From: Natronomonas aquatica
GTDB taxonomy: Archaea; Halobacteriota; Halobacteria; Halobacteriales; Haloarculaceae
Reading direction: 5' to 3'
Length of the DNA: 36,621 bases
NCBI RefSeq assembly: GCF_024449025.1
Contig: NZ_JAHLKM010000023.1
Span: 1 to 36,621 of the forward strand
Shown here piece after piece: positions 10,499-36,621 of this stretch (positions are counted from its first letter, which is position 1; each line of letters begins with the position of its first letter). Under the pieces are notes generated by a model that saw only the letters and a program-made list of their open reading frames with translations, did no database searches and was not told where the DNA came from. Both the position numbers and the translations under genes were made by a program.

Positions 10499-10538
10499 AC
10501 CAGCAAATATCCCAACGCTTGCAGTGCGGTTCGGGAAG

Positions 10539-11831: not shown

Positions 11832-11938
11832 GATCGAGTTCTATCCGCGAATAACAGATAAAACTATCTCGATTAGCGATGAAGTCTCGTCCGGAAAACA
11901 GCGGGTATCTATCATTAAAGTGGTCGTCACCGAAACGT

Positions 11939-12046
11939 GTGCTCAACGGCGACACTGCCGACGAATGGCTCGATACATGGCGAGAACACCGCGGATACTA
12001 CGCGCCCGTCGAAAGCGTAACAGAGATTGTCGGCGACGAAGGGTAG
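11939..12046 (+). CDS. Possible 35-residue ORF or gene fragment
   Basis: GTG 11939 opens a 35-residue frame (LNGDTADEWLDTWREHRGYY ...) ending TAG 12046. Its acidic, Trp/Tyr-bearing composition looks like real haloarchaeal protein, not random translation. No family is recognised. It lies at the edge between core chromosome and island and could be the 3' tail of a gene lost at the junction. Confidence 0.25.
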   Translation: MLNGDTADEWLDTWREHRGYYAPVESVTEIVGDEG

Positions 12047-12053
12047 TTACTGC

Positions 12054-12122
12054 TCATTCAGACTCGGTCCGCAACGCTTCGAGCGTGTCTGCCCACATCG
12101 ACGACAGGGAGGGTGGAGCCAT
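12054..12122 (-). pseudogene. Possible 22-residue ORF, convergent remnant
   Basis: On the minus strand ATG 12122 begins MAPPSLSSMWADTLEALRTE and stops two codons later at 12054. The sequence is protein-like but too short to classify, and it faces the 11939 ORF. It may be a truncated gene end left at the island boundary. Confidence 0.15.
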
Positions 12123-12202
12123 CACGACTAAATCTCATTTTGGGATTCAACAAAAGGCTGAAGCCTAGGCCGGGCTATAAGGCTAAACACTAAATCCCTG
12201 CG

Positions 12203-12210
12203 TATAAAAT
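12203..12210 (+). promoter_or_regulatory. TATA box of the recombinase at 12224
   Basis: The element tataaaat starts 21 bases before ATG 12224, in an AT-rich stretch that ends the core region. It implies a leaderless transcript. Confidence 0.55.
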
Positions 12211-12223
12211 ATATAAACTACAC

Positions 12224-13516
12224 ATGGGAACCAGAAGCCGAATCGAGAACCTTCAAGAGAGGATCAAAAAGCGATCTGGCCTCTCAGAAGAAGAACCAGA
12301 AGACGACGACTATCCCCGAATCAGAGATGATGACGCTGAAGCACTCCTTGAGTTCAGCAAGCAGTTGGACCTTCTGAGTTCGGAGTACAGCGACTACCGC
12401 CACGAGAAACTGCTACGCCACTGCGTCATCATGGCCGAACAGGTCGGTGGACTCGCCGAAGCTCTCGAAGATCGAGACGCTGCAGAAGACATCGTCCGCT
12501 GGATCAATACGGAGCGAAGTACCGAGGACTACGCCGAGGAGACGAACCACGATTACCGCGTCGCAATACGAATCTTCGGTAAACGAACGCTGAAGCGCGA
12601 CGAAGTTCCTGAACCGCTGGCGTGGATTCCCACTGGGACGAGTAACAATCACGATCCGACTCCACGTCGGTCGGACATGTTGGAATGGAACGAGGCGAAG
12701 AAGATGGCGGACGAAGGAACGAATAATAAACGAGATGCGGCACTCATCACTGTCTCATACGAACTCGGCCCACGCGGTGAGGAGATGCACGAAGTTCGAA
12801 TGGGGCAAGTGCAGGATGCAGAGAACGGTCTACAGATCGTTCTCGATGGGAAGCAGGGCGAACATTCGGTTACCCTGATCAACTGTGGCCCGCATCTCCA
12901 GCAGTGGCTCTCCGATCACCCTGCGCCAGATGATGATGAAGCCTATCTCTGGTGTAATCTGGATGACCCCTACGATAACGCCTCATACCAGACTTTCCTC
13001 GAACGGTTCAAGAAGGCGGCCGATCGGGCGGGGATTGGCAAACCGGTAACACCGACTAACTTCAGAAAGTCGAATACCTACTGGCTGGCCAAACAGGGGG
13101 CCAACGAATCGCTCATCAACGCTCGCCAAGGACGTACCGCAACGTCGGATCACGCACGTCGGTATTTAGCTGAATTCGGTCCCGAAAACGAGAACAACCA
13201 GTACGCCGAACTCCAGGGACTTGAGGTTGAAACTGAAAAGACAAAGGACAGAACACCTCTGACGTGTCCACGGTGTGACAAAGAGACTCCGCGTGACGAA
13301 CCGTTCTGTGTCTGGTGTCATCAGGCGATGGAACCGGACGCTGTGGACAAACTCGAAAAAGAGGAATCCGAGCAACGGCGGGAGCTACTCCGGCTGGCAA
13401 AAGAGAATCCAGAGCTGCTAGATGCGGTTGAGGAAATCGAGCCTCTGATCGAAACTCTAGGTGGGGACGCGAAAGTCATCAACACTGCTCGGGAGTTTGT
13501 AGAAGCGACCGAGTGA
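12224..13516 (+). CDS. Tyrosine recombinase-like integrase with C-terminal zinc ribbon
   Basis: A 430-residue protein. Residues 40-130 are a helical core-binding domain and about 150-330 the catalytic domain: R184 (LGPRGEEM), K210, R281 in PTNFRKS, and a Tyr candidate Y314 (ARRYLAEF). The His of the HxxR box is replaced by Thr (T278). A zinc ribbon (C350, C353, C364, C367) and a coiled-coil-like acidic tail follow. Haloarchaeal integrases with such C-terminal ribbons occur in proviruses and plasmids. Loss of the box His may weaken catalysis; it does not disprove activity. The next gene is convergent and is also recombinase-like. Confidence 0.75.
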   Translation: MGTRSRIENLQERIKKRSGLSEEEPEDDDYPRIRDDDAEALLEFSKQLDLLSSEYSDYRHEKLLRHCVIMAEQVGGLAEALEDRDAAEDIVRWINTERSTEDYAEETNHDYRVAIRIFGKRTLKRDEVPEPLAWIPTGTSNNHDPTPRRSDMLEWNEAKKMADEGTNNKRDAALITVSYELGPRGEEMHEVRMGQVQDAENGLQIVLDGKQGEHSVTLINCGPHLQQWLSDHPAPDDDEAYLWCNLDDPYDNASYQTFLERFKKAADRAGIGKPVTPTNFRKSNTYWLAKQGANESLINARQGRTATSDHARRYLAEFGPENENNQYAELQGLEVETEKTKDRTPLTCPRCDKETPRDEPFCVWCHQAMEPDAVDKLEKEESEQRRELLRLAKENPELLDAVEEIEPLIETLGGDAKVINTAREFVEATE

Positions 13517-13621
13517 GCGAAAACCAACAATCTGCCCTCAAGAGGATTAGCAACTGGTGCCCGTCTAACATCCACAAAGAGGAATTTGAAGCTGATTCGT
13601 CGGTTCGCTACCGCAGACGAA

Positions 13622-14308
13622 TTATTCGTGATCGGCTCCACACCAGAGGCATGGTTGATGTTGCGGAACCCATGCACCACAATCTGGGCACTTGATGGGG
13701 GATCCTGGTCCATCGTCTTCGTGGGAACCGTCGATTTCGAATGTTTTAACGAACGCCTCTTGCTTCTGGGGCCCAAATCCAAATCGCTCTTGAAGAGCGG
13801 AAGTTCTCAGTCCGAGTTGGACGGCCAGCAGTATCGCTCGTGATCGGCGGATGTCGTGCATCGTAAATTTTGTCGGGACATCAGCGAGCTCACAAGCACG
13901 ATTCGTGATTTCATTTAATAGAGTAGAGTGGATTCTCTTGTTTGCACCGAGATGCGTCCAGATTGGCGTCTCTGGGGGAGCTTCCTCTAACGGGTCGGCA
14001 TTCGAAACGAGTAATTCAGTTACTGAATGTTCTGCTTGTACCCACCGTTTGAAGTAGGGCATCGATCCGTACAGAGTGAGTAATCGTTCCCGGCCATTTC
14101 GTTGAGTGAGCAGTATGGCTATGTGATCGCCTCTGTCTTCCACATCACCGAAGGTGAGCCGTTGAAGTTCTGATAGTCGTGCGTGTGACTCCCACGCAAC
14201 TGCCAAGAGGGCTTTGTCTCGGATGTGGATGTCCGGGTGTTCAAGGATTGGTACGATGTGATCATCCCAGCGGACTATCGTCCCCTGGTCGTCATTCGGT
14301 TCTATCAT
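13622..14308 (-). CDS. Recombinase-like catalytic domain with Phe at the Tyr site and a zinc ribbon
   Basis: A 228-residue protein from ATG 14308 (five codons more are possible). It corresponds only to the catalytic half of a tyrosine recombinase: R44 (HARLSEL) and H151-x-x-R154 (TMHDIRRSRA) are in place, but the stretch aligned with the catalytic Tyr reads QEAFVKTF, with Phe. The N-terminal core-binding domain is absent. The C-terminus is a zinc ribbon, CPDC-x9-CLWC, like that of the convergent neighbour. It may be an inactive DNA-binding relative acting as regulator or directionality factor, or a decayed integrase. A good TATA box lies upstream, so it is probably expressed. Confidence 0.7.
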   Translation of the reverse strand: MIEPNDDQGTIVRWDDHIVPILEHPDIHIRDKALLAVAWESHARLSELQRLTFGDVEDRGDHIAILLTQRNGRERLLTLYGSMPYFKRWVQAEHSVTELLVSNADPLEEAPPETPIWTHLGANKRIHSTLLNEITNRACELADVPTKFTMHDIRRSRAILLAVQLGLRTSALQERFGFGPQKQEAFVKTFEIDGSHEDDGPGSPIKCPDCGAWVPQHQPCLWCGADHE

Positions 14309-14374
14309 GACGCATCCCATCATTCGACCCGGGGGATAATCGACGGTTTGTGGGTAAAGTCGACTTTAGCCCCG

Positions 14375-14385
14375 AAAATTTTATA
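14375..14385 (-). promoter_or_regulatory. TATA box of the recombinase-like gene at 14308
   Basis: Read on the minus strand it is tataaaatttt. Transcription should begin near 14350, leaving a leader of about 40 bases. Confidence 0.5.
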
Positions 14386-14541
14386 CCACCAATCAATCAG
14401 CGGTACAGTTTAGGAGCGAATAAAGCGTTCCGAAAGAATGCTGGGTATCTCCAATCGCCATAAACACCGAACTCTAATCAACTGGGAGAACCGTCATAGA
14501 CCCAGCTGATAGTCATCTTCAGGATAGGTAAATACGTGTGA

Positions 14542-14928
14542 TTATCCAAAGTTGTCCCAATCCTTACTTGCAGTATCTATGTGGTTCTCTGAGGGACGAT
14601 TTTTCGACTCAATCAGATTGTATTGAAATTTAGATAGGTTATCAACAAGTAATTTCCACTCTTTGGAGTCATCCGGGACAACTCGCTTACAAACACCGAT
14701 TTCTTCAGCCTTCGACAAAATTTCGTCTAATGTTCTCGACGAGAAATCTGTTTCACGGGGGCTTCCGAGTTCTGTGGCTCCCTTCGAGGGATTCTTTGCC
14801 ATCCCATTTGTTTTGTTCTTTAATTCTGTGAACCCCATAGTATGATTCTCTGTCTTGAGCAGAATATACAGTACAATTTGCGCGTACTTCTTTTCTAAGA
14901 GATCGTTGAACGCTTCTTTGTCTACCAT
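14542..14928 (-). CDS. Hypothetical protein, AT-rich island gene
   Basis: The likely protein starts at ATG 14928 (128 residues); the frame is open to 15063, but that extension is not acidic and looks like non-coding sequence. MVDKEAFNDLLEKKYAQIVLYILLK, TMGFTELKN and TLDEILSKAEEIGVCKRV suggest a winged-helix type fold (helix, then recognition helix with GFTELKNK), but no family is recognised. The codon use is far more AT-rich than the left part of the window, a sign of transfer. No operon partner. Confidence 0.5.
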   Translation of the reverse strand: MVDKEAFNDLLEKKYAQIVLYILLKTENHTMGFTELKNKTNGMAKNPSKGATELGSPRETDFSSRTLDEILSKAEEIGVCKRVVPDDSKEWKLLVDNLSKFQYNLIESKNRPSENHIDTASKDWDNFG

Positions 14929-17071: not shown

Positions 17072-18049
17072 TTAGTCTGCTTTTATTATTTGCGTATAGC
17101 CAGGGTCCTCAAGCATCGACATATATGCCAGGTCAATATCACGGCCAGACAGGTGTACATACCTACCCGGAACGCGAGACCCTGGTACCCACCCGAACCA
17201 CGCGCACATCTGCGCTTCTGTAAGGTAATTCGCCAAGTACGTCGCTCGACTGTGTCTGAAGTGATGCGGATTCACCGGTTTCTTGATACCAGCTTGTTCG
17301 CTGGCACGATCTAAGATTCGCAAACGAATGTACTGGTAACTAATTGTCTCATCCGGAGATCCTTGCTTAGTATCGATTTTACACCAGAGTGGAGCGTCAT
17401 GGTGTCGGTTCGGGTGCACTGTTAGCCATGATTCAAGATACGGTTCAGATTCGAGGAGCAAGAGCCGGCGTGACCCCGTTTTTCCCGACACGATCATCTG
17501 CTTTCCGAGTGCCTTCTGTTCGATATGCCCAACTTCCAGATCGATGAGTTCTCCGATCCGCGCTCCGGTCTCCCATAAGACGGCTACAAATGCACGATCA
17601 CGGTCGTTATGGCACGCTTCGAGTAGCGCTCGAATATCCGTTGGAGTGAGCAGGCTCTGGGGCAAAATCCGTTTTTGTTCCACGGGACCCCGCCGAATCC
17701 ACTTCGTTTCCTCAGGGTCTTCACCATCGTTCAACCACTTCCAGAACTGCTTGATCGCTTGCTTGTAATCAACGACAGTAGAGGAAGACGTTCCACGTGT
17801 GTATAGCCACGCAACTAAATCGACTATCGCCTCTTTGTCCAGATCTACGAACCGCGTTTGCCCCACATGATCTGTGATGATCTTGAAATGGGCAAGCACC
17901 TTCTGCTGTTGGGCTGAACTAATATCTGCAAGAACCATGTCCCGGTGATACTCGACTATGAGCCGCTTATTTTCGGGGTGAATGTGTGTAGCCGACTCGA
18001 TATACGCTAATGTTCGAGTCACCGCTGCCTCATAATCCATTGTAGGCAT
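17072..18049 (-). CDS. Tyrosine recombinase/integrase, complete
   Basis: From ATG 18049, 325 residues. The N-terminal core-binding domain spans about 30-110, and the catalytic domain is intact: R164 (TGARIGEL), K190 (VSGKTGSRR), H262-x-x-R265 (NPHHFRHSRATYL), W284 in CAWFGWVPGS, and Y297 (PGRYVHLSG). This is the commonest haloarchaeal XerC/D-like integrase type of plasmids and islands. The frame is open 27 codons upstream and ATG 18040 is an alternative; the segment before 18049 lacks acidic composition. It is divergent from the AlbA_2 gene. It is the most likely active recombinase of the cluster. Confidence 0.9.
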   Translation of the reverse strand: MPTMDYEAAVTRTLAYIESATHIHPENKRLIVEYHRDMVLADISSAQQQKVLAHFKIITDHVGQTRFVDLDKEAIVDLVAWLYTRGTSSSTVVDYKQAIKQFWKWLNDGEDPEETKWIRRGPVEQKRILPQSLLTPTDIRALLEACHNDRDRAFVAVLWETGARIGELIDLEVGHIEQKALGKQMIVSGKTGSRRLLLLESEPYLESWLTVHPNRHHDAPLWCKIDTKQGSPDETISYQYIRLRILDRASEQAGIKKPVNPHHFRHSRATYLANYLTEAQMCAWFGWVPGSRVPGRYVHLSGRDIDLAYMSMLEDPGYTQIIKAD

Positions 18050-18215
18050 ACCGCTCGTGAAGGTATCCAGCGAAGATAACGCGCGCGGTGAATTACTCAC
18101 CCGAGATTCAATAGTCCAAGTACAGTCCACCGATCGGCTCTGTCTGGTACTCTATAGATAGCGTTTAAGTGGCCGGGCTATCTCCAGTTATTTGAAACAT
18201 CTGAATGGTGGGTAT

Positions 18216-25124: not shown

Positions 25125-26183
25125 TCACAGGTCTGCAGCGACTCGCTCAAGCACCGCCATCACGGCCTCAACTTCCGCTCGGGTGAGCTCGGGCTCACCG
25201 TCGGTCTCAGCCGCGTGCTGCGTGGAGTCGACTATGTCACTCGACACATCCTGCTGACTGGCCTCAGCAGCATCATCACCATCAGCAACAGTATCGAGCC
25301 GTTGTTGGCCTGCTGCGTCAGCTGCATTCCCCGTACCGCTGGGACTCGCAGTCGACTCAGTCCGCTCATCGTGCGTCGGCCGGCCGCCACCACCGCGGAA
25401 CGCGTCCAGCGGGAAAGAGTACGCATTGGCCCTTTTCTCGCGGTGAAATGTCGTGCGACGAGACACGTCGAGCACGTCCATAATCGCCTGCCGGTCAACC
25501 CCGCGATCCAATGCTTGGCGGACCAATTCATCTTCGACCCGCTGGACCAACGTCTGCGAGTTCGACGGGATATGCCCGCGAGCAGAGTGCTCGATCTGCC
25601 CGGTCAGGCCCCACTTCCCGGTCTCGACATCCTGGTCGACGATTTGACGGTCACGGGACTGGACAATATTATCCAACCCCATCAGCGTCGCCAGCCGCTC
25701 TCGGACCGCTGTCACCGACAAATCCGCGGTCAGGGCACGCGCGACCTCACCCGTCGTCGCAGGCCCCTTGTCCGCGAGATACTGTAGAATCTCGATGTCC
25801 TGCGACAGCAACACGCCGAGGTCCTCATCGCTCAACGTCACCGGTGCATCCTCATGGGTCGCCTGCTGATGGATCCAGTTGTGACACGACCGACACAGCG
25901 TCGTGAGGTTCTCTGGTGCATCCCCATCGATGCCGTCCGGATTCCGCTCGATATGATGGACGTGCAGGGTCGCTAATCCGCCACGCTTCGGGCCCTTGCG
26001 TCCACATACCCGGCAGCGATACTTGTCGCGCTTCAGCACGTCAGCCCGCACGGCCGCATCAAGCGACTCGGATGTTCGAGGACTCCAGGTATCTTCCGCA
26101 CTGGACTCGACATCCGTGTTCCCGGCCGTCTGTTGCTCGCTCGATTCGTCACCGTCAATTCCCGAAGGGTTTGTCTGCGCCAT
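25125..26183 (-). CDS. HNH endonuclease with winged-helix domain, HRAMP-associated
   Basis: A 352-residue protein from ATG 26183 (GTG 26192 is possible). Residues 50-107 are a complete HNH nuclease: RDKYRCRVCGRK, then LHVHHIERNPDGID, then NLTTLCRSCHNWIHQ. Zinc Cys pairs are at 57/60 and 97/100, with the catalytic His in HVHH at 76-77. A winged-helix region follows at about 120-180 (EILQYLADKGPATTGEVARA), then a second helix-turn-helix-like stretch (DRQAIMDVLDVSRRTTFHRE) and an acidic disordered tail. It is last in the minus-strand HRAMP operon, 127 bases after the exonuclease. HRAMP loci carry varied nucleases proposed to replace the missing CRISPR effector nuclease; this is one candidate. 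Confidence 0.8.
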   Translation of the reverse strand: MAQTNPSGIDGDESSEQQTAGNTDVESSAEDTWSPRTSESLDAAVRADVLKRDKYRCRVCGRKGPKRGGLATLHVHHIERNPDGIDGDAPENLTTLCRSCHNWIHQQATHEDAPVTLSDEDLGVLLSQDIEILQYLADKGPATTGEVARALTADLSVTAVRERLATLMGLDNIVQSRDRQIVDQDVETGKWGLTGQIEHSARGHIPSNSQTLVQRVEDELVRQALDRGVDRQAIMDVLDVSRRTTFHREKRANAYSFPLDAFRGGGGRPTHDERTESTASPSGTGNAADAAGQQRLDTVADGDDAAEASQQDVSSDIVDSTQHAAETDGEPELTRAEVEAVMAVLERVAADL

Positions 26184-26310
26184 GGGTTTCACGCTCTGGA
26201 TTGGTGGTCGCTGCTGTGTCCGCGAACCGCAGGTGCGTCGTGGTGTATCGCTTCAATCAGCCGTTCACCGCGGCCGCTACTCCGACATCAAGGGGCTGAC
26301 TCTACCGGTG
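26184..26310 (-). other. 127-base gap inside the HRAMP operon
   Basis: This is the only clear non-coding gap between genes of the operon. It contains a gattgaagc 9-mer (read on the minus strand, 26258-26250), identical to the 3' end of common haloarchaeal CRISPR repeats, but no other repeat match. A match of this length is fairly likely by chance in a window of this size. Confidence 0.3.
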
Positions 26311-26979
26311 TTATCCGTACTCCGTGGGCGTTAGCGATTTCACGTCAAATTCCGATTTCGCGCAGTACTGCTCTGCAAGCCGGCCAAGCGCCCGTGTCCG
26401 CAGCACGTCCGCGACATTGTGCGTAACCAGGTCGGCCAGCCGGCCTTCCTCAAACGCGTCGATGGCCTCGGCGCTCTCCGTAAACGGGTCGATCATGTTG
26501 AGATCCCCATCACAGAGCGTCCCATATACTGCGGCGAGACTCGACTGCTCATCGCCGTCCACGGTCGTGTTGAACCGGCGAGAAATGACCGGCATCACGT
26601 CCGCGAACGGCACGTCCCGGAACGGCCACTCGACGCCTGTCGCCACCAACCGTGTCCGCAGGAACGGTAAATCAAACCCATCGCGCCACCGCTCACCGTT
26701 GTACGCAACGAGTAACACGTCCTCGCCACACACTCGCTCAGCGACAAACTCACCGACCGCTCGCAGCAGCTCGGATTCCGCTTCGTGAAGCGAGACGACA
26801 ACTCGCTCCCCGACTCGCTCCCGCACCTCATCCTCAATTTCACCAGTGCCCACTGCAGCACTACCAGCGTGTACGAACACGCGGCACCCCAACGGCACTG
26901 CAAACCCGACGGCCGTCACTACATCATTAACCTCGAACCCTGTCGTCTCAATATCGAACGCAACCTGCTCCAACACCAT
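26311..26979 (-). CDS. DnaQ/YprB-like 3'-5' exonuclease, HRAMP-associated
   Basis: A 222-residue RNase H-fold exonuclease. Motif I is AFDIETTGF near the N-terminus, motif II is YNGERWRDGFDLPFLRTR and motif III is THNVADVLRT, with the final Asp four residues after His. The pattern is nearest to the YprB/RNase_H_2 or PolB-exonuclease-like groups. ATG 26979 overlaps the TGA of the upstream RAMP gene by one base (TGATG), so translation is coupled; GTG 26982 is a less likely start. Together with the HNH gene it gives the locus two nucleases of different type, as expected of HRAMP. It may trim or degrade DNA or RNA; the substrate is not known. Confidence 0.82.
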   Translation of the reverse strand: MVLEQVAFDIETTGFEVNDVVTAVGFAVPLGCRVFVHAGSAAVGTGEIEDEVRERVGERVVVSLHEAESELLRAVGEFVAERVCGEDVLLVAYNGERWRDGFDLPFLRTRLVATGVEWPFRDVPFADVMPVISRRFNTTVDGDEQSSLAAVYGTLCDGDLNMIDPFTESAEAIDAFEEGRLADLVTHNVADVLRTRALGRLAEQYCAKSEFDVKSLTPTEYG

Positions 26980-27974
26980 CACACCTCACCCCCTGCAAAC
27001 TCGGGACTCCGTTCAGGAACACGATCATCGCTCACCGGCCGAACCCTGATCTCACCGAACCCGAACCGCGAATGCGTCCCGACTCGGAGCACCCCGTTCT
27101 TCGCTGTCTCAACCGGGCGCGATCCGTCGTATCCGACGATCTGCCCGTGATCAATCGTCGCCAACTCATACACCTCGTCATCATCAACCAGGCGCTCCGT
27201 CCGTCGCCGTAACCCGGCACGGCTCGCCGCACTCGCCCTGCAGTCACCATGACCGTCAGCCGGAGATGCTCGTGGACGTGAGGTGTCCCACCACCACGGC
27301 ACCGACTGTTCATCCGCATTCGGGAATTCACTTGCCACCACGAACGGTGACACTAACTCAAGGACGTGGTCGTCTGCTGCCGTCACTCGGTCATATGCCA
27401 GTTCATCGAGCTCGATAACCTGCGAATCTACGAGCGACAGTCGACCGAACCCGTAGTTCCGCGCCCCACCGGCCTGCAGCCGATCCAGCGTCTCGTCCGC
27501 CACCGGTAGCAGCGACTCCCCGTGCGTACCCGACATCGTGTGCAGGTAACACTGGACGAACCATCGAACCGAGCGCTTCGAAGTCTGCATCTCTGGCGGC
27601 CGACCAAACCACGTCACCGGATCGAACGCGAGTCGCCCACCGTGGCTCTGCACCGGATGCGCGTTCTGCGCGTCCCGTGGCCACGACGACTTCAACCAGC
27701 GCTGCGCCGCATCCCGCAGCAGGAACAGGTCATCATACGACTCGACTGGCGGTAACGACACTCCGACCTTCCCTAAGGATGACTGGGAATACCACGCCGG
27801 CGGCGTCCCGTACGTCTTCGGCAGGAACACACCGTGACTGACGCACAACGCTCGCCGCATCCGCTCGTCGACGCGCTGCGCTAACGCCTGGTACAACGCG
27901 TTCCCCGTCACGTAGTACGGGTGGCCCAGGTACGCCGTCTCCAGCTCGAACAGAACCTGCTGGATCCGCGTCAC
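26979..27974 (-). CDS. Cas5-like RAMP protein with two glycine-rich loops (HRAMP)
   Basis: A 331-residue protein. Two RAMP signatures are visible: GGARNYGFGRLSLV at about residues 169-182 and GTHSRFGFGEIRV at about 299-311. These Gly-rich loops contact crRNA in Cas5, Cas6 and Cas7 proteins, so the protein may have two RRM-like domains. The N-terminus (HPYYVTGNALYQALAQ) fits the start of a RAMP fold. The start is GTG 27974, whose bases overlap the TGA of the upstream small gene (GTGA); GTG 27983 is an alternative. I call it Cas5-like because HRAMP is known to pair a Cas5 and a Cas7 homolog and the neighbour is clearly Cas7-like. A Cas6-like processing role is a real alternative. Confidence 0.75.
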   Translation of the reverse strand: MTRIQQVLFELETAYLGHPYYVTGNALYQALAQRVDERMRRALCVSHGVFLPKTYGTPPAWYSQSSLGKVGVSLPPVESYDDLFLLRDAAQRWLKSSWPRDAQNAHPVQSHGGRLAFDPVTWFGRPPEMQTSKRSVRWFVQCYLHTMSGTHGESLLPVADETLDRLQAGGARNYGFGRLSLVDSQVIELDELAYDRVTAADDHVLELVSPFVVASEFPNADEQSVPWWWDTSRPRASPADGHGDCRASAASRAGLRRRTERLVDDDEVYELATIDHGQIVGYDGSRPVETAKNGVLRVGTHSRFGFGEIRVRPVSDDRVPERSPEFAGGEV

Positions 27975-28375
27975 GCTAACCACCCCTCATTTCCACTCCA
28001 GATGCCGAGAGATTCCAGGGAACAAAGCGCCGTGGGCTGTAGCCCAGACACACCCTGTTTCCAGTGCCACCAGTTGTACAGCGCCGCTACCGCCTCAACA
28101 CCGAGGCCGATCGGGACAGATTGTAGCCACCAGTCCCGCAGCGGCATCGCACCTCGACGCAGTGATGCCGCCCCTCTATCTCGACGACCACACACCCTGT
28201 TTCCAGTGTCTTCACGGAGATACTCCCACCACGAGGCACACACCCCGTTTCCACTGTCTTCACCACAACGACCACACACCCCGTTTCCAGTGCCACTAGC
28301 AGGAGACACGTCGACACCGTCGAATTCGGGCATCAATCCAGACCCGCAATGATCGGATCCGAAGCGCCCCATCAT
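27971..28375 (-). CDS. 134-residue Cys/Trp-rich protein carrying DNA repeats
   Basis: This frame is supported by its joints. ATG 28375 shares a base with the upstream stop (TGATG), and its TGA overlaps the next GTG start (GTGA), exactly as at the other junctions of the operon. The protein (134 residues) has three [TS]GN[GR]VC units in its first half (TGNGVCGRCGE, SGNGVCASWWE, TGNRVCGRR), possibly zinc-binding, and a Trp-rich second half with a hydrophobic stretch (VPIGLGVEAVAALYNWW). It is much less acidic than its neighbours. The three units come from 22-bp DNA repeats, and a fourth copy lies out of phase, so the region may serve mainly as RNA or DNA. No family is recognised. Confidence 0.5.
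   Translation of the reverse strand: MMGRFGSDHCGSGLMPEFDGVDVSPASGTGNGVCGRCGEDSGNGVCASWWEYLREDTGNRVCGRRDRGAASLRRGAMPLRDWWLQSVPIGLGVEAVAALYNWWHWKQGVSGLQPTALCSLESLGIWSGNEGWLA
28033..28046 (-). repeat. Short GC hairpin next to repeat copy D
   Basis: TGGGC / GCCCA with the 4-base loop TGTA. It ends two bases before the fourth 22-bp repeat at 28049. Confidence 0.35.
28049..28296 (-). repeat. Four irregularly spaced ~22-bp repeats inside the HRAMP operon
   Basis: Copies on the minus strand are A 28296-28275, B 28260-28239, C 28212-28191 and D 28070-28049. The shared core is CACTGGAAACRGGGTGTG, with B differing by one base (CAGTGG). A and D match at 21 of 22 positions. Start-to-start distances are 36, 48 and 142. 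Flanks are also shared in pairs: GTGG before A and D, AAGA before B and C. A, B and C are in one codon phase, D in another, so selection on peptide cannot explain D. A weak fifth copy may lie near 27980-28000, over the next start codon. This is not a canonical CRISPR, since the spacers are too uneven. Confidence 0.8.
28141..28171 (-). ncRNA. Strong hairpin between repeats C and D
   Basis: gcggcatc (28141-28148) pairs perfectly with gatgccgc (28164-28171). One G:U-type pair and one more G:C can extend the stem to 10 bp around an 11-base loop. It sits in the long interval between repeat copies C and D, within the HRAMP transcript, and suggests a folded RNA segment. Confidence 0.45.
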
Positions 28376-29241
28376 CACGACCACCCCCGCTCAACATCAG
28401 CAGCATCAGCATTACGCACACCACGCCACGCAACGAACTCCTCGATGTACTGCAGCGCCGTCGACCACGACCGCAGCCGGCGAAGCTGCGCATCCAACAC
28501 CATCAACGCCCGCGACCCGTCAGTGTCGAACGGTTGGTCCGACAGGCGTGACCAGCCATCCGCAAACGACCGCGCCGGCTCCGGCCCGAGCCTCGCCGCC
28601 GGCCGATCACCCGGATCACTCGTCACAGCCAACGTCACCAACGGCGACCACAACACCGTCCGATGCGGCGACACCACGTCACTTTCCAACGCCGCCTCAG
28701 GACCCACATCAGCAGCCGCCGACTCACCAGGCCAGACCGCCAAGAACAACTCGTCGAAGCTCCGTCCAGCACGGTACTCCGACAACAACGCCGCCGCTAA
28801 CAACACGTGGTACTTCAACGACGTGTACGGATAGTACACTGACTCGTTGAACGCTGCCGCCACATCGCTCGTCAGCCACGCCGCGTGGAGCCGAGATGCG
28901 TCACCAGAGACAACCAAGTCTCGGAACCCACCATCCGCTGCCGCTTCGATCCGGCCAGATTCAGTCGCGGACTCACCCGTCAGCAACGACAACCGATACG
29001 GAGACGAGTGGTTCGCCACCGTTTGGTCCGGCTCACCTGAGGGCCGACTCAGCAACGCCGCATCACCATCCGCACCCAACGGGACGGCCTCATTCACGCG
29101 CACACCGTGGTACTCGTCAGCTGCCGCACTATGCCGCCGACCATTCATTTTGTGTACATCGTGGCGATACACCGCCACCATCGGATCAGCAACCGTCTCA
29201 CCGACAGCATCAGCATCCACCAAGTCACGAGCGTCGCCCAT
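28375..29241 (-). CDS. Conserved uncharacterised HRAMP-type protein
   Basis: A 288-residue protein with no recognised domain. The middle is helical (NESVYYPYTSLKYHVLLAAA, LLSEYRAGRSFDELF), and the end has conserved-looking aromatic helices (LRRLRSWSTALQYIEEFVAW). Its ATG overlaps the Cas7-like gene's TGA (ATGA), and the next gene starts on its stop (TGATG), so it is embedded in the coupled operon. The published HRAMP description includes one uncharacterised conserved protein beside Cas5 and Cas7; by position and size this is the best candidate. A large-subunit-like (Cas8-type) role is a guess without sequence support. Confidence 0.65.
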   Translation of the reverse strand: MGDARDLVDADAVGETVADPMVAVYRHDVHKMNGRRHSAAADEYHGVRVNEAVPLGADGDAALLSRPSGEPDQTVANHSSPYRLSLLTGESATESGRIEAAADGGFRDLVVSGDASRLHAAWLTSDVAAAFNESVYYPYTSLKYHVLLAAALLSEYRAGRSFDELFLAVWPGESAAADVGPEAALESDVVSPHRTVLWSPLVTLAVTSDPGDRPAARLGPEPARSFADGWSRLSDQPFDTDGSRALMVLDAQLRRLRSWSTALQYIEEFVAWRGVRNADAADVERGWS

Positions 29242-30236
29242 CAGAGCTCACCTCGCTCCCCCTCGTCGACACTATCCTGACGATCAATCGCCGTGCCCAG
29301 CTCGCCGTCACTATCGCTCACACGCGCCTGCAACGCCCGCGTGAACTCTTCGCGGTAGACTTCACGCCACTGGTCGTCTTTCTCCTGCATCGCTGTCGTC
29401 GCGTTCTGCGCCCGGTTGTACACGCGGCGGATCTCCTGGTCGGTGTACAGCGGATTCACCACACCTACATCTGCAATCCCTGCACCGAAATTCCGCGCAC
29501 CACCGAGCTGGAACTCGAACGTATCACTCTTCGAATTGAGCAACGATACCGCTTCTAGCAACAACCCGACGAACTCCGGTTTCAGCGTTCGCAGTGTCAA
29601 CAGCCACGTTCCCTCGACGTTCCCGACTACGTCACGGGTGGCGTGCCGAAGCGGTTCGCCACCATCCTCGTCATTCCGTGAACGTACCTGCGTGTGCAGC
29701 TGCCGGTAATGCGCCTCGGCCTCACCACGCAGCACGTCAACCTGCTGTCGCACCGGCGAGAACCGAATCGGCCGACGCAACAACTCGCCCGGTTTGTCAC
29801 CGAATCCACCGAACAACTCGTAGACAACACAGCCAGCGTCGGTATCGCCTGCCTCAACGCAGGCTCCTTTCTCGTGGTACCCCTGGCTCAGGTCACGATC
29901 ATACACATCTGTACGCATATAGTCCGCATTCGGTTCACCTGGATGGCACGCCGACATCCCAGCAATCTGCAACACGCGTTCACAACCGTGCCGTAACCAA
30001 CCCGACAGCGTGAACGGCGAAATCTGCCCGCGAATCTGATTCATTGCATCGTCCGCCTCGTACCGATCCGCAGACGCGTGATGCCGATCAGTCACGATGC
30101 CGTCACCCGGTGCAAGCAGATCCACCCCAAGGTCGAGGTAGAGATCCGGGAACGTCGATTCATCAACAGGTGGAAGCTCGAACTCACCGTCGAGGTTCCC
30201 CGCCGAGAATGACGGGGACTCCGATCCCCCCGTCAT
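29241..30236 (-). CDS. Cas7-like RAMP protein (HRAMP, Csf2/Csm3-like)
   Basis: A 331-residue protein. Residues 68-89 (QIRGQISPFTLSGWLRHGCE) resemble the Csm3/Csf2 block PxIPGSSLKGxLR that holds the crRNA backbone, and GGARNFGAG at 245-253 is the Gly-rich RAMP loop. DLYLDLGVDLLAPGDG near residue 35 fits the first RRM strand with the initial substrate loop. Length matches Cas7 of type III and IV systems (about 300-350). ATG 30236 is chosen because it overlaps the upstream TGA (ATGA); GTG 30260 is also in frame. It should form the helical backbone on a guide RNA if the complex behaves like other class 1 effectors. The catalytic Asp of Csm3 could not be placed. Confidence 0.78.
   Translation of the reverse strand: MTGGSESPSFSAGNLDGEFELPPVDESTFPDLYLDLGVDLLAPGDGIVTDRHHASADRYEADDAMNQIRGQISPFTLSGWLRHGCERVLQIAGMSACHPGEPNADYMRTDVYDRDLSQGYHEKGACVEAGDTDAGCVVYELFGGFGDKPGELLRRPIRFSPVRQQVDVLRGEAEAHYRQLHTQVRSRNDEDGGEPLRHATRDVVGNVEGTWLLTLRTLKPEFVGLLLEAVSLLNSKSDTFEFQLGGARNFGAGIADVGVVNPLYTDQEIRRVYNRAQNATTAMQEKDDQWREVYREEFTRALQARVSDSDGELGTAIDRQDSVDEGERGEL
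30198..30219 (-). repeat. GC hairpin at the 5' end of the Cas7-like gene
   Basis: tccccg / cgggga, 10-base loop, lies within the first 15 codons (S5-D16). It resembles the hairpin at 25089 and TnpB right ends. It may be a sequence coincidence or a domesticated insertion remnant. Confidence 0.25.
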
Positions 30237-30742
30237 TGCGAACCACCACTGTCGCACCACGACGACGGCTGCTCACGGCCAGATGACTCTTCCACCACAA
30301 CCGAATGAGTCACATCAACTCCGGCATCCTCACCATCGGCACCCGAGTCCGGATCAGCATCATCCAGCGTGTATGCCTCTATCGTGTTTACCGGACTGAG
30401 GGCAACCAGCTCAGGGTCAAGCAATACCGGCCACGTCGACTGCGTCGCGGTGTCCGACACAGTACCAACACGCCCCCGCACAACCAGCTCACGGAGCGAC
30501 TGATCCCACGAGCGATTATACTCATCTCCGTGACCACGGCAAAACGTGTCCTCAACCATAAATTTCGGACCAGACTCCGACCGAAAAGCGGACACAGTAA
30601 TGCGTCCACCTTCACGGATTCGAGAGTCACAGAATTGACAGATAACGGCCCCTTCCGCCGAATCGGATAGTTTTAGTTTGTTTATGTCTTCAATAAGCTC
30701 GCTGTCGATACTTTCTTGATTTGGTGGTGTTGATTTCGTCAT
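30233..30742 (-). CDS. CxxC protein, first gene of the HRAMP operon (possible Csf1-like)
   Basis: A 169-residue protein. Residues about 30-75 hold a putative zinc finger, CQFCDSRIREGG, then CRGHGDEY some 30 residues later. The C-terminal 40 residues are acidic and disordered. The order zinc-finger protein, Cas7, Cas5-type RAMP parallels csf1-csf2-csf3 of type IV CRISPR-Cas, where Csf1 is a small zinc-finger protein. That is positional analogy only. Its start codon follows directly on a leader with strong secondary structure. It ends in an ATGA overlap with the Cas7-like gene. Confidence 0.6.
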   Translation of the reverse strand: MTKSTPPNQESIDSELIEDINKLKLSDSAEGAVICQFCDSRIREGGRITVSAFRSESGPKFMVEDTFCRGHGDEYNRSWDQSLRELVVRGRVGTVSDTATQSTWPVLLDPELVALSPVNTIEAYTLDDADPDSGADGEDAGVDVTHSVVVEESSGREQPSSWCDSGGSQ

Positions 30743-31172: not shown

Positions 31173-33200
31173 TCACTCCAGTTCAATCGCCTTACTAGCC
31201 GCATCAAGGGGATTAGTGTAGAATACGAGTTGGAGCTGGTCAAGGAGTTCGTCGGGGATTTTCGGTAAGTCTTCTTTGTTCTTCGCAGGAAGGAGCACCG
31301 TTTTGGCTCCAGAATCCGCAGACAGTTGGAGTTTATCGATCAACGAACTCACGGAGACTAGCTCGCCCATCAAACTCATCGATCCCAGTACGACGGTCTG
31401 TGGCCGGACTGGTCGATCAAGAATGCCCGAAACAATACCGACGAGGAGCCCGACACTCGTTTCACCACCCTCATTCGCATCAGAGGGGTTCAGAACCTGG
31501 ACGTTGATGTCGTATTCATCCAGAGTCTCTTCACGACTGAGTTCCCGCATATTTGCCTGTAGATAGTCACAGGCGGTTTCAAACGACTCTTTCATCCGCT
31601 TTCCGGGCGTGCCCGAAATATTCGTCTTGCCCGATCCGGGGAGTGTCTGAGTCTCGATTCGGAAGGGAGCGTGGCGTCCTTCGCTCTCGCCTATTGTGTA
31701 GACCGTTCCCGCCTGCTGTGTTCCTGGGGGAATGAGTGACTCGTCTGCTTCTTCGGGTACTGAGACATAGATCTCCTCTTTCGTATCCAAGTCGAGGTAG
31801 GAGAATTCGACGGCACGATATTCCATACCGCCAATCCGCTTCAATTGTTCCTTGACTCGACGACGACCTTCCATGGCGAATTCGAGATACTCTCGGAGTT
31901 CTTCTTTCGTGTACACACCATGTGGATGAAGTAGCTTGAGTAGACCTGAGACAGTCTTACGTACGGCCTTTTCGTCTCGTTGGTTCAGGTGGTCACCAAA
32001 CGCGAACTCCTCGTTGATCGCGTCACCGTACGACTCCTTTCGGAGCTCCCGGACGAACTCAGCGAAGTAGTCGACGATGAATCCAAACTGGTCGCCAAAG
32101 AACTCGGACCGCATCTTCGGGACTTCCCACCCTGGAAGGTAGTAGTGGAATCGGTCGATGAGCGCGAGATCCTGCATATCCTCGGGGAACGGTTCAAAGA
32201 GGTGTGAACTCTTGAGAACGCCTTCAACGTCAAGGTCGATATTCCCGACATAGACCATCGAGGCTTGGGCGGTGAGCTCTTCAGTCCCACGAGAGAAGCT
32301 TCCGGACTCCATGTAGTCTTTGAGCATCTGGACGGCTTCCGAATCGCTGAACTGGAGTCCCCCGACCTCGTCGAACGCGACGACATCCCAGCGACCGACG
32401 AGTCCGATCCGTCCTGTATTCAGGTTCAAGAAGAGTTTCGCAACGGTGGTTTTACCGCCGGAGATGAGGATTGAATGGGGACTGATTTCGCGGTAGAGAT
32501 AGCTCTTTCCCGTCCCACGTGGTCCCAATTCGACGTAGTTGTAATTTGACTCGACGAGGGGTATACACCGAGCTAAGAAGAGGAATTTCTCGCGGTCGCT
32601 AAATGAAGAGGGGTCGTAGCCGACGGTCTGAAGGAGAAGGTCCATCCATTCGTCGCGCGTGAAATCGTTACGTCGATCTTTCAGTTGGTCAAGGTCAAGA
32701 TTCGATACCTGTATGGGTTTGAATGAGTCGATGCCGAAGAGGCTCTTTGGACTGTTCGCATTATCAGGGAGATATTCCAAGTCGATGATAGCCCAGACGC
32801 CACCACCGAGGAGCTTTGGATGCTTGCTGACGAGATGTTCGTTGATCTCGACATCGCTCAAACCGAGGTTGACAAACGAACCGATGTAGGCGTCCTGTTG
32901 TTCATCGAGCCTGACGGTGACCTTGTCAATGACGCGATAGCGTCCCCGCTCTCGAACCTCGCTCTTGACGAATTCGGCTTCGTCAGGACGAACGTAGTGC
33001 TTTGACAGAATCTCTTTGACCTTTTCGAGGCCCTCTTCCAGAGATTCCTCGTCATCAGTCGCACAGTACTGTCCGATCAGATATTCGAGAACGTAGGTAG
33101 GGACGTTTACCCCGGATTTGATGTCCTGAACAAGGTCTTTCCGGACGACGCGCCCGGAGAAGACATCCAGGGCTTTCCGATCTACGTCCTCAGTCGTCAT
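31173..33200 (-). CDS. brxL: BREX Lon-like protein BrxL
   Basis: A 675-residue AAA+ ATPase fused to a Lon-type protease-like domain. Walker A is GPRGTGKS at 226-233 and Walker B VVAFDEVGG at 273-281. The C-terminal 110 residues have the Lon fold (NEGGETSVGLLVGIVSG, then SLIDKLQLSADSGAKTVLLP) with Ser and Lys at the dyad positions. BrxL occurs in BREX types 1 and 4 and is needed for phage restriction in studied systems, where it acts on DNA. It follows pglZ by 121 bases. Length and all domains are complete. Confidence 0.9.
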   Translation of the reverse strand: MTTEDVDRKALDVFSGRVVRKDLVQDIKSGVNVPTYVLEYLIGQYCATDDEESLEEGLEKVKEILSKHYVRPDEAEFVKSEVRERGRYRVIDKVTVRLDEQQDAYIGSFVNLGLSDVEINEHLVSKHPKLLGGGVWAIIDLEYLPDNANSPKSLFGIDSFKPIQVSNLDLDQLKDRRNDFTRDEWMDLLLQTVGYDPSSFSDREKFLFLARCIPLVESNYNYVELGPRGTGKSYLYREISPHSILISGGKTTVAKLFLNLNTGRIGLVGRWDVVAFDEVGGLQFSDSEAVQMLKDYMESGSFSRGTEELTAQASMVYVGNIDLDVEGVLKSSHLFEPFPEDMQDLALIDRFHYYLPGWEVPKMRSEFFGDQFGFIVDYFAEFVRELRKESYGDAINEEFAFGDHLNQRDEKAVRKTVSGLLKLLHPHGVYTKEELREYLEFAMEGRRRVKEQLKRIGGMEYRAVEFSYLDLDTKEEIYVSVPEEADESLIPPGTQQAGTVYTIGESEGRHAPFRIETQTLPGSGKTNISGTPGKRMKESFETACDYLQANMRELSREETLDEYDINVQVLNPSDANEGGETSVGLLVGIVSGILDRPVRPQTVVLGSMSLMGELVSVSSLIDKLQLSADSGAKTVLLPAKNKEDLPKIPDELLDQLQLVFYTNPLDAASKAIELE

Positions 33201-33321: not shown

Positions 33322-35748
33322 TCACACGTCAAATCCCATATCGTCATCTCCGAAGAGTAAATCGAGGCTCACAGTCTGTCTCGTGATCGTCTCTCTGGTG
33401 TCAGTATCGACGACTTCGAATTGGACCATATCTTCACCCGAGATGGCTCCCTGTTTGAGCCGAACACGGGTGCTATTGTCGCCAGGGGAGATCTCCATCG
33501 TAACAGGATCTGCGACTGGCTCACCATCGATGGTTGCACGAACCTCTAATGTTGGTGCGGGGTCGAAGGCGACTTGCCCACTCTTGGCCTCAATCTCCAC
33601 GGTGAGTATGGAGTTTGTAATCGGATCGGGGATCGAGACATCGTAGCTGATCGAGGCGCTCTCTTCGATTTCGCCCGTGGTCACAGTGAGACACGGGACT
33701 AGGAGTTCTTGAAGCGAAATCCCACCGTGGAAGTAGCGCATATTCCCACCTCGTGACTTGAAGCACGCGACACTACGGGGGAATAGCAACTTGATCTCGG
33801 GGCCATCAATGCCGAGTTTCGACAGTGCCTCGTGATCGATCTCGACGAACTCATCAGTATCGACGAGTGGCGTTTCGCGGTCGGCAGCAGCGAACCGGCG
33901 TTTGACGACCGGAGCAAGGTCAGGAGCCTCGACTTTGTGATCATCATTCAGCCGGTCCGTATACAAGAACCCGTGATCGCTGGTGATCACGAAGCGAGTA
34001 TAGCCGGCCTGTTTGAGACGCTGGACAGTCCGTTCGACATCGTCGACGTGAGACGCAACCTGGCTGAATGCAGCATCGTCGTCAAGACTCTCGCCGAGTT
34101 TGTCTATCGTGCCGGAGTAGACGACACGCGGAACGGGGTCGGACTCGGTCAGTTCTTCCAGTGAAATGTCGCCAACCTCGTCCATATCGACGACCTCGAA
34201 GCCCGCAGCACTGAGTCGTTCGACGCGCTCGGCCTTTCCAGCCATTTCCTCACCACTGCTGGTGACGACGAGTTCGTCGTCGTCGAGTGAGAGTCCGAGT
34301 TCACCCGGAAGGTGTGCGGCCATACCGACCTCTGTGATCGAGGGCAGTGCAGCACTCACTGCGGAGAGATCCTGTTCGAAGTCGGTTCGGCGGCCAAGAT
34401 TCTCACGGATGGCTTCAGCAAGTTCGTAGCGGAGCCCGTCACAGATAATGATCGCCGTCCCGTCATCCACCTCAGCGAATTCCTCATAGAACGAGGTTTG
34501 TGGTGTTCCGAGTGTCGGATCGTCGCTCAGAATCTCTGCCAGAGGCCGGTTGACACCCTGAAGGAAGGCCATATAGTGGTTGGTGACCTGGCGTTTCACC
34601 GTAGCTTCCTTTGGGTACGGGAATGTGGCCTTCTGGGTCGCGTCGATGTAACGCCGATAGGCTGCATCAACCTGCCACCAGCCGTCATCGCTCGTGTACT
34701 GTCCCGCAAGCTGTCTCGAACCCATCGCTTTCGCGTCGTCGACATCGACGGTACCGATCTGACGAAGCGTCTCAACCGCCAAAGCAGGCACCGACCAATC
34801 AACGAGGTCCTCGTTGCTCCAGAAACTGTCCCGGCGTTTCGTGACTGTCCGATTAAGTTCCGCCGCGATCTCCGGAAGATCAGCATACGTTCCCTCAGCA
34901 AGTCGATCCATCACGAGCCGAATCAGGCCAGTATCGATTCCCCTGAACGCTGTGGCGTTCCATCGGGTTTGGTCGGATTCGATCACGGCCTCTGTGAGGT
35001 CGTAGTCGGATTCGATCTCCCGTGAATAGCGAGTGAAATCGGCGGGAGTGTACTGCTGCCAGTCGTCGCAAAACTCCGCCGCAGCTTGAGCATCGTCCGC
35101 AGCGAGATTGTCGTACTGGGCGGTCGGCGCACGACTCGTCACCTCACCGAAGAGGAGTTGAGTTGCCAGTTCTTTCGGGTCCAGTCCGGCATCGATGCCG
35201 TACTCCTCGCGGAGCTGTGCATCCCAGGCATCAGCCATCGCGTTATCTTCGATGTCTAAGCGATAGTCCTCGGGGGCAGCAAGATAGTCGCGTACCCACT
35301 CGTCGATTGCTGGGCCTACAGTCTCGAAGAGCACACAAAAGAACGCCAGACGCTGGTACTCGCGGTTCTGTCCCCAGTCCTCGTATGCGTCCGGAATTTC
35401 TTCGTCGTGCTCGACGAGGAACTGTGTTACCGGTGTGTCATCAATATCTTGACCGACGCGGTACTGGCGGCCGAGCGCGTGGACATCGCGGAACCACTCG
35501 GCGTCATTTCGGGACTCTGGGATGTAGAACAACCAGTTCTTCTCGTAGTCCGGATCCTCGTTTCGGAGACGGAGCTTTAGCTCGAAGTAACTGCCGTTGT
35601 AGCGAGCCAGTTTGACATCGTCGAGTTCAGCTTCGACCTCGTTGAGAACGCCCTTGTACTTCTCCTGGGCATCGTACCACACCCAGACTGGGTGTCGATC
35701 GAATTTTTGACGAAGTTCCGTGATAATGCTTTCCGCGAGATCACCCAT
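33322..35748 (-). CDS. pglZ: BREX alkaline-phosphatase-fold protein PglZ
   Basis: An 808-residue protein with the PglZ core: GTAIIICDGLRYELAEAIRE, containing the metal-binding Asp in CDGLRYE, and TRFVITSDHGFLYTDRL with the SDHGF metal motif. The region between contains AALPSITEVGMAAHLPG, the usual PglZ nucleophile-side block. The N-terminal 400 residues are helical, and a beta-rich C-terminal domain follows, as in BREX-1 PglZ. It starts 6 bases after the pglX stop. PglZ is the signature protein of BREX and Pgl systems. Confidence 0.92.
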   Translation of the reverse strand: MGDLAESIITELRQKFDRHPVWVWYDAQEKYKGVLNEVEAELDDVKLARYNGSYFELKLRLRNEDPDYEKNWLFYIPESRNDAEWFRDVHALGRQYRVGQDIDDTPVTQFLVEHDEEIPDAYEDWGQNREYQRLAFFCVLFETVGPAIDEWVRDYLAAPEDYRLDIEDNAMADAWDAQLREEYGIDAGLDPKELATQLLFGEVTSRAPTAQYDNLAADDAQAAAEFCDDWQQYTPADFTRYSREIESDYDLTEAVIESDQTRWNATAFRGIDTGLIRLVMDRLAEGTYADLPEIAAELNRTVTKRRDSFWSNEDLVDWSVPALAVETLRQIGTVDVDDAKAMGSRQLAGQYTSDDGWWQVDAAYRRYIDATQKATFPYPKEATVKRQVTNHYMAFLQGVNRPLAEILSDDPTLGTPQTSFYEEFAEVDDGTAIIICDGLRYELAEAIRENLGRRTDFEQDLSAVSAALPSITEVGMAAHLPGELGLSLDDDELVVTSSGEEMAGKAERVERLSAAGFEVVDMDEVGDISLEELTESDPVPRVVYSGTIDKLGESLDDDAAFSQVASHVDDVERTVQRLKQAGYTRFVITSDHGFLYTDRLNDDHKVEAPDLAPVVKRRFAAADRETPLVDTDEFVEIDHEALSKLGIDGPEIKLLFPRSVACFKSRGGNMRYFHGGISLQELLVPCLTVTTGEIEESASISYDVSIPDPITNSILTVEIEAKSGQVAFDPAPTLEVRATIDGEPVADPVTMEISPGDNSTRVRLKQGAISGEDMVQFEVVDTDTRETITRQTVSLDLLFGDDDMGFDV

Positions 35749-35754
35749 ATCGAA

Positions 35755-36558
35755 TTACCTCGAATAGCTCGATTTCAGCTTCGGAAGTCCAGTTTTGAGG
35801 ACTTCGTACTGGTCCCATTCTTTGATGTTCTCCCAGATTCCTTTCTCAACATCAACACTGACGCCATCATCGACCATCTCATCGATGGTCTCCCGGAACT
35901 CCTTGATGTCATCGAGATCGTCTTGGACTTTTTCTTTCCTCTTCAGAAGCTCCTTATCCGGATTGTCGCCACTGGTTTGTGCGTTGAGGGTTTCAAGCTC
36001 ATTTTCGAGTTCATCGATTCGTGGGTCGAGATACTGTCCTCGGAGTTTTGGGAGCGTGTTCTCATCTATTTCATGGTAATAGACGAAGCAACTGAATGCA
36101 CCGTTAGAACTTTCTAGTTGCCAATAAATCGGTGTTCTTTGCCCTCGGCGCTTGTATTCGTCGGTGTGGTGGTTTCGAAAGAATTGTTTCCTCATCCATT
36201 CGGAAGGCGAATTTCCTAAATTAGATCTGATCTGATCCAATACCGTAGCTGGTTCATCAAATAGAGATTCAATCGATTCTTGAACAAAATCACTAAACTC
36301 ATTTGAATAGGGGCATATTGAGAGTATTTCCTCTTTATCTGTCGAAATCCCGTCACTTGACCATCTACCGAAATACAACCCTAAAATATATGATAATAAA
36401 CGGCCTGCAATGTCTTCATATTCATCTGCAGTATAGAGATTGTGTCGTCTTCGCAGTTCCGCGATAAGATATGGCGAGATCTCCAACTGTTCTGCCAACT
36501 CTATAATTGAACTTGACTCACCGTTCTCAATACGGTCTGATATTTCGCCTGTGTTTAA
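35755..36558 (-). pseudogene. pglX: C-terminal fragment of BREX methyltransferase PglX
   Basis: The frame is open for 267 residues from just after stops at 36559-36564 (TAG, TGA) to TAA 35755. It encodes only the end of PglX: EISDRIENGESSSIIELAEQ, a helix with LLSYILGLYFGRW, the conserved block QRTPIYWQLESSNGAFSCFV, YYHEIDENTLPKLRGQYL, and a coiled coil. Full PglX is about 1,100-1,200 residues, so the methyltransferase domain is missing from this frame. No ATG begins it; TTG 36498 is the only near-start. The upstream bases belong to another frame. The gene appears interrupted, probably by an insertion. Confidence 0.75.
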
Positions 36559-36576
36559 TCACTAGCGGGCGGGGGA

Positions 36577-36621
36577 TCACGTCGTGAGATCAAAGGCGTT
36601 GAAGCGGGAGAGTAGTGATTG
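36577..36621 (-). CDS. End of an unidentified ORF, possible insertion-sequence transposase
   Basis: The last 15 codons of a minus-strand frame run in from beyond the window (QSLLSRFNAFDLTT, then TGA 36577). The stop is 16 bases before the point where the PglX frame begins. This fits a transposase gene whose element is inserted in pglX, with 36559-36576 as its end, but neither the element nor a target duplication can be seen here. Confidence 0.35.
   Translation of the reverse strand, partial: QSLLSRFNAFDLTT

What the first reader, a model, noticed from the sequence alone, without database searches (positions are those of the whole stretch)
35755..36621. BREX locus with a broken pglX: insertion or decay
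pglZ and brxL are complete, but the PglX frame begins only after two adjacent stops, and a different minus-strand ORF ends 16 bases before it. Losing the methyltransferase would leave BREX unable to mark self DNA, so the remaining genes would be silent, harmless or repurposed. Alternatively this is one form of a switching pglX.
Basis: partly seen in the sequence, partly recalled or inferred. Interest (0 to 1): 0.6.

Follow-up and report, generated by a model that had tools for sequence, protein, structure and literature searches.

The report
Anti-virus gene pglX cut by transposons
In a salt-loving archaeon, the DNA-marking gene of a BREX anti-virus system has been cut by two ordinary jumping elements, so the system is probably switched off; this is natural gene decay, not a new mechanism.

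Summary
In detail: pglZ and brxL are complete, and the minus-strand PglX frame starts only after TAG TGA at 36559-36564. The cause is now clear. The window is one whole contig of a haloarchaeal draft. Its last 75 bases (36547-36621) are one end of an IS5-family insertion sequence, identical at the edges of five other contigs, so a sequencing error is excluded. The missing 5' part of pglX (862 codons) ends contig C49, behind brxA, brxB and brxC, and is cut there by the end of a different element, of the ISH6 family. About 97 codons between the two cuts are absent from the assembly; such a piece would be about 450 bp with overlaps, and no contig below 511 bp was seen. Both elements make 8-bp target duplications, shown at other copies in this genome but not at pglX itself. 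This is a type 1 BREX locus with a recently disrupted pglX; by published knockouts it should neither methylate nor defend. No second BREX-type pglX was found, and pglX is one whole frame in 21 of 23 related loci, against switching. Mild surprise: the same two elements also cut two other defence methyltransferases and a DruE-like helicase here.

The parts
36547..36621 (.). One end ('end A') of an IS5-family insertion sequence, running off the contig; contains the two stops 36559-36564
   Evidence: Identical at the edges of contigs C21, C4, C75, C53, C44; 75.8-82.6% like sequence in 13 plasmid records, beside an annotated IS5-family transposase in the two opened, Halobacterium noricense and Haloarcula sinaiiensis; the opposite end adjoins an IS5-type transposase tail on C76
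36539..36546 (.). Presumed 8-bp target copy (minus strand GAAATATC); its partner copy is not in the assembly
   Evidence: 8-bp duplications shown at three other copies of the same element; no partner among the four opposite ends found
35755..36546 (-). 3' part of pglX: last 263 codons plus stop (C-terminal region of the BREX-1 adenine methyltransferase)
   Evidence: NF033452 E 9.6e-33, PADLOC PglX E 1.5e-24 for 35755-36558; 8c45 positions 1023-1204; 56-65% identical to pglX of close relatives
33322..35748 (-). pglZ, complete, 808 aa
   Evidence: PF08665 E 2e-22; TIGR02687 164.6 bits, below its cut-off of 270; 97% identical to Haloarcula japonica
31173..33200 (-). brxL, complete, 675 aa, Lon-like
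   Evidence: TIGR02653 908 bits, cut-off 628; PF13337, PF20442

Best explanation
This is a type 1 BREX locus (brxA-brxB-brxC-pglX-pglZ-brxL) in a haloarchaeon whose pglX has been cut by two separate insertion sequences. An ISH6-family element sits after codon 862. An IS5-family element sits before the last 263 codons. Both cuts fall in or next to the spacer between the target-recognition domain and the C-terminal region. The roughly 97 codons between them very probably still exist in the cell but were dropped from the draft because the piece is shorter than 500 bp. Shown: both element ends, both pglX parts, the other five BREX genes whole, and 8-bp target duplications at other copies of both elements. 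Inferred: that the middle piece survives between the elements, and that the locus neither methylates nor defends and is tolerated because BREX restriction itself needs PglX.
For: Contig edge is a repeat shared with five contigs. The 5' pglX frame ends C49 behind brxA, brxB, brxC, cut by an ISH6-family end. Element boundaries and 8-bp target copies: IS5-type pairs C75/C76, C75-left/C21 and C64/C44; ISH6 pairs C58/C80 and C44/C36. Middle of pglX: 95-101 residues in 7 of 7 relatives aligned, not found in the genome; expected piece 439-457 bp plus a few; 81 of 82 contig lengths seen, shortest 511 bp. Outside pglX both contigs are 96.7-99.6% identical to the same relatives. Published: delta-X gives no methylation and no defence (PMC6326788). 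Position of the cuts relative to domains: with PMC11341690.
Against: The target duplications at pglX itself cannot be checked, because neither partner copy is in the assembly. The junction of C49 with C25 through the middle piece is inferred, not sequenced. The middle-piece search had no positive control genome. The alignment that puts the first residues of the 3' part near 924 of 8c45 is weak (first segment 5.8 bits), so the domain placement of the second cut is approximate. No methylation or phage data exist here.
Confidence: 0.83

Rival explanations
1. Insertion plus deletion: the two elements are now neighbours, or a rearrangement between element copies joined distant places, and the middle ~97 codons are gone. 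The gene is equally dead.
For: Middle segment not found in the draft; neither target copy has its partner.
Against: The draft has a sharp 500-bp floor (shortest 511 bp, 81 of 82 lengths), so a ~450-bp middle contig would be missing anyway. Outside pglX both contigs resemble the same relatives at 96.7-99.6%, so they were one locus.
Confidence: 0.13
2. A switching (phase-variable) pglX: the broken copy is one state, restored by a recombinase from a second partial pglX or by element excision.
For: Two integrase-like genes lie in the same contig (12224-13516 and 17072-18130), and pglX switching is claimed for other BREX loci (recalled, not read here).
Against: Only one BREX-1-type PglX in the genome, in two parts. 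21 of 23 related loci have one whole pglX frame and none shows a second pglX in the stretch read (named loci). Both contigs run about 75 bp into the elements, as expected if no intact junction competed in the assembly graph (inference).
Confidence: 0.03
3. Sequencing or assembly error: pglX is intact.
For: The break coincides with a contig edge.
Against: The bases with the stops belong to a repeat found identically at six contig edges, with matching 8-bp duplications at other copies; the 5' part is cut at another place by another element.
Confidence: 0.01

Closest known systems
Type 1 BREX (brxABC-pglX-pglZ-brxL), e.g. E. coli HS (PMC6326788)
   Same: Same six genes in the same order, across two contigs; BrxC, BrxL and the PglX 5' part pass NCBIfam cut-offs.
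   Different: pglX is cut by two insertion sequences. PglZ falls below both NCBIfam BREX-1 PglZ cut-offs (TIGR02687, NF033450), so it is a divergent haloarchaeal form.
BREX loci of Haloarcula japonica DSM 6131 (L106), Halobellus captivus (L108), Haloferacaceae archaeon XH8 (L109)
   Same: brxB, brxC, pglZ and brxL 96.7-99.6% identical.
   Different: They keep one whole pglX frame of 1274-1276 codons; PglX itself is only about 61-62% identical.
Halococcus thailandensis JCM 13552 BREX fragment (L113/L221)
   Same: Also a cut locus: its brxL stops at an ISH6-family end and its pglX at a contig edge.
   Different: Different genes and sites; the sequence at its pglX edge was not identified (2 records match, no annotated transposase under the match).
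ISH6 and IS5 families of haloarchaeal insertion sequences
   Same: Element ends, 8-bp target duplications, transposase tail.
   Different: Whole copies were not recovered from this draft; the IS5-type element was not assigned a registered name.

Membership tests
Type 1 BREX | Six genes brxA, brxB, brxC, pglX, pglZ, brxL in this order | tested here: met
   C49: BrxA PF08849, BrxB PF08747, BrxC NF033441 918.6 bits, pglX 5' part; window: pglX 3' part, pglZ, brxL; order as in relatives. The link C49-C25 is inferred.
Type 1 BREX | Whole PglX methyltransferase frame | tested here: not met
   862 + 263 codons on two contigs, cut by two different element ends; about 97 codons not in the draft
Type 1 BREX | PglZ of BREX-1 type by curated cut-off | tested here: not met
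   TIGR02687 164.6 of 270.35 bits, NF033450 120.5 of 400; PF08665 passes its own cut-off
Type 1 BREX | N6-adenine methylation of a 6-bp site and phage exclusion | not testable with these tools
   Needs methylome or infection data
ISH6-family insertion sequence (in pglX, C49 side) | ISH6 terminal sequence | tested here: met
   Matches in 25 plasmid records (identity bands 80-99%; 90.4-97.4% in the 20 rows listed), many overlapping annotated ISH6 transposases
ISH6-family insertion sequence (in pglX, C49 side) | 8-bp target duplication at this site | tested here: inconclusive
   Shown at C58/C80 and C44/C36; the partner of AAGCACTT at pglX is not in the draft
IS5-family insertion sequence (in pglX, window side) | IS5-type transposase in the element | tested here: met
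   Another copy of the element, at C76, carries a 50-residue transposase tail 72% identical to an annotated IS5-family transposase; the copy in pglX runs off the contig
IS5-family insertion sequence (in pglX, window side) | Target duplication at this site | tested here: inconclusive
   8-bp duplications at three other copies; the partner for GAAATATC is absent from the draft
Switching pglX | Second (partial) pglX with repeats and a nearby recombinase | tested here: not met
   No second BREX-1-type PglX in the genome; the integrase-like genes of the window lie 17 kb or more from pglX

The most novel reading that the evidence does not exclude
The insertions are not random decay but repeated, selected silencing of defence methyltransferases. 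In this genome three of the four large Eco57I/PglX/DrmM-type methyltransferases found are cut by just these two elements (pglX twice), and a DruE-like helicase is cut too, while neighbouring defence genes stay whole. That could mark selection to drop self-marking or defence, for example in favour of DNA uptake or during laboratory growth.
Probability: 0.15. Interest if true: 0.5.

Novelty: new member of a known kind. Interest (0 to 1): 0.22.

Why it matters
It is also a natural archaeal BREX locus with pglX broken and the other five genes whole. That bears on whether losing PglX is tolerated while the rest stays: E. coli tolerates it (PMC6326788), while a Salmonella study could not recover the deletion (PMC9009780). 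The clustering of the same two elements in defence genes of one genome is worth a closed assembly.

Tried and rejected
Sequencing error at 36559-36564: rejected, since the bases lie in a repeat identical at six contig edges.

A single insertion with the 5' part directly on the other side: rejected, because the 5' part is cut by a different element at a different place.

A miniature non-coding element instead of a full insertion sequence: a same-genus genome (G120) has two 122-bp copies of a similar end without a recognised transposase in the stretch read. But here the opposite end adjoins a transposase tail, so a full IS5-type element is preferred. A mixture is possible.

pglX as a preferred site of decay in haloarchaea: not supported; 21 of 23 related loci have a whole pglX. 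The two exceptions are G012 copy a (two overlapping frames, with brxC broken as well) and G335 (cut at a contig edge).

A strong statistical claim for targeting of defence genes: not made. 5 of 10-12 insertion sites lie in defence genes. If defence genes were 5% of the genome, the chance would be 6e-5 to 2e-4, but the 5% is assumed, the test was chosen after seeing the data, and the hit genes are AT-rich (pglX 35-46% G+C around the cuts, pglZ 57%), which such elements may favour.

Search for element ends in L095/L096 by a simple terminal pattern found nothing. Searches of the paper library on BREX with insertion sequences, transposon insertion or phase variation turned up no listing of this case; only listings, abstract starts and the passages named in the report were read.

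Full report
What was checked. The window is contig C25, whole, 36,621 bases, of an 82-contig haloarchaeal draft of 3.21 Mb. pglZ (33322-35748, minus) and brxL (31173-33200, minus) are complete. The other 'ORF' is a 14-codon run at the contig edge.

What the edge is. The last 77 bases recur at 100% identity (71-77 bases) at the edges of C21, C4, C75, C53 and C44. In plasmid records similar sequence (13 records, best places 75.8-82.6% identical) lies beside IS5-family transposases in the two whose annotation I opened, Halobacterium noricense and Haloarcula sinaiiensis. The opposite end of the element was found at C75 (left), C64, C76 and C11. On C76 it follows a transposase tail of 50 residues, 72% identical to the annotated IS5-family protein. 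The element boundary in the window is 36546/36547. Flanks pair as 8-bp duplications: C75 right with C76; and C75 left and C64 with C21 and C44, where two insertions share the target GACTGAAC and reading frames at the edges tell which goes with which (C75-left with C21, C64 with C44). The window's own target copy, GAAATATC, has no partner among the four opposite ends; C4, C53 and C11 are unpaired too.

Where the rest of pglX is. A PglX model search of the genome gives its best match, 609.9 bits over a cut-off of 500, at C49:14881-17373, model positions 1-869; the window's part matches positions 1078-1209. C49 carries brxA (9635-10447), brxB (10437-11006), brxC (10999-14643) and pglX from 14830. 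C49 ends in a second repeat, shared with C31, C44 and C58, that matches ISH6-family ends in 25 plasmid records. ISH6 insertions pair as 8-bp duplications at C58/C80 and C44/C36; C49 (AAGCACTT), C31 and C42 have no partner. So pglX keeps 862 codons on C49 and 263 on the window. In all 7 relatives aligned, 95-101 residues lie between these two points. A search with this segment from a relative found nothing in the genome (without a positive control genome). The shortest of 81 contigs whose length I saw is 511 bp (C79 not seen), and the expected middle piece with 77-base overlaps is about 440-470 bp. A 500-bp filter therefore explains its absence. A deletion is the main rival.

Domains. Against the solved Salmonella PglX (8c45), residue 856 of the 5' part aligns to 864. 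The first residues of the 3' part fall near 924 by extrapolation from a weak segment; the strong segment starts at 1023. [quoted passage not shown] Both cuts thus fall in or next to the spacer. The 5' part keeps the methyltransferase and recognition domains but loses the rest.

Function. In E. coli, deletion of brxX (pglX) removes methylation and defence, and deletion of brxB, brxC or brxZ does the same (PMC6326788, passages read). A plasmid BREX behaves likewise for pglX (PMC8565348, passages read). I infer that this locus is inert. A Salmonella study could not recover a pglX deletion (PMC9009780, passages read), so tolerance may depend on context. That both pglX parts are still open frames and the element ends are identical to other copies suggests recent events (inference).

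Relatives. Of 146 genomes of the family searched with the 3' part, 32 match at E <= 0.001 (own included), most of them weakly; none of the 19 listed other genomes of the genus matches. Of 391 genomes of the class, 23 have a PglZ at E <= 1e-30, own included. I examined all 23 other loci in the 22 other genomes. pglX is one frame in 21. The exceptions are G012 copy a and G335. G012 copies a and b also have brxC in two frames, and copy b has pglZ in two. The 10 named loci overlap this set; pglX is one frame in 9 of 10, the exception being Halococcus thailandensis, whose brxL ends at an ISH6-family end. One named locus, Halorubrum sp. CBA1125, has brxC and brxL in two frames each. Outside pglX the locus is 96.7-99.6% identical to Haloarcula japonica, while the pglX 5' part is about 61%: against three close relatives it falls from 72-96% in the first 350 codons to 20-64% after codon 400.

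Other hits of the same elements in this genome. The IS5-type element cuts a type IIG-like methyltransferase (C75/C76). ISH6 cuts a DrmMI/type IIG-like methyltransferase (C80/C58) next to a BrxHII/DrmD/HmaA-like helicase, and it abuts a DruE-like helicase frame (C31). A fourth large methyltransferase, on C60, is whole. Counting pglX twice, 5 of 10-12 insertion sites lie in defence genes; the range reflects unpaired ends. I do not claim targeting: the background share is assumed, the test is post hoc, and these genes are AT-rich.

Verdict. It is an ordinary kind of thing with one mildly interesting side pattern.

Noticed in passing
window 25125-30742 (minus): A run of genes next to brxL with weak CRISPR-type III resemblance: Cmr3-like 26979-27983 (E 1e-6), Csm3-like 29241-30260 (E 8.5e-4), DEDDh-like 26311-26982, HNH plus HTH 25125-26192. 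It may be a haloarchaeal RAMP cluster without an array (name recalled, not tested).
   Followed up: partly
window 9203-10498 (+), 12224-13516 (+), 17072-18130 (-): A TnpB-like gene and two phage-integrase-family genes; G+C falls from about 70% at 2-6 kb to 47-49% at 14-20 kb, which suggests an island boundary.
   Followed up: no
G000 C75:7012-9013 with C76:190-1941; C80:77-3445 with C58:13697-14464; C31 (L073:4522-8640): Two more large defence methyltransferases split, and a DruE-like helicase frame cut, by the same two insertion sequences.
   Followed up: partly
L113 / L221 (Halococcus thailandensis JCM 13552, 5305-bp contig): Another BREX locus cut at both ends: brxL runs into an ISH6-family end at 5220, and the pglX frame starts only at 74, next to the contig edge.
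   Followed up: partly
G012 C3 (L068, L069): Two BREX copies on one contig, each with frame breaks but in partly different genes (copy a brxC and pglX, copy b brxC and pglZ): either parallel decay or sequencing errors.
   Followed up: no
G120 C1 (L089, L090): Two 122-bp copies (96.7% alike) of a repeat about 92% like the window's element end, without a recognised transposase in the stretch read: a possible miniature element.
   Followed up: no
L018, window, L106, L108, L109: BrxB, BrxC, PglZ and BrxL 96.7-99.6% identical across haloarchaeal genera while PglX is about 61-62% identical beyond a conserved start: recent spread of the locus with exchange of the specificity part.
   Followed up: partly
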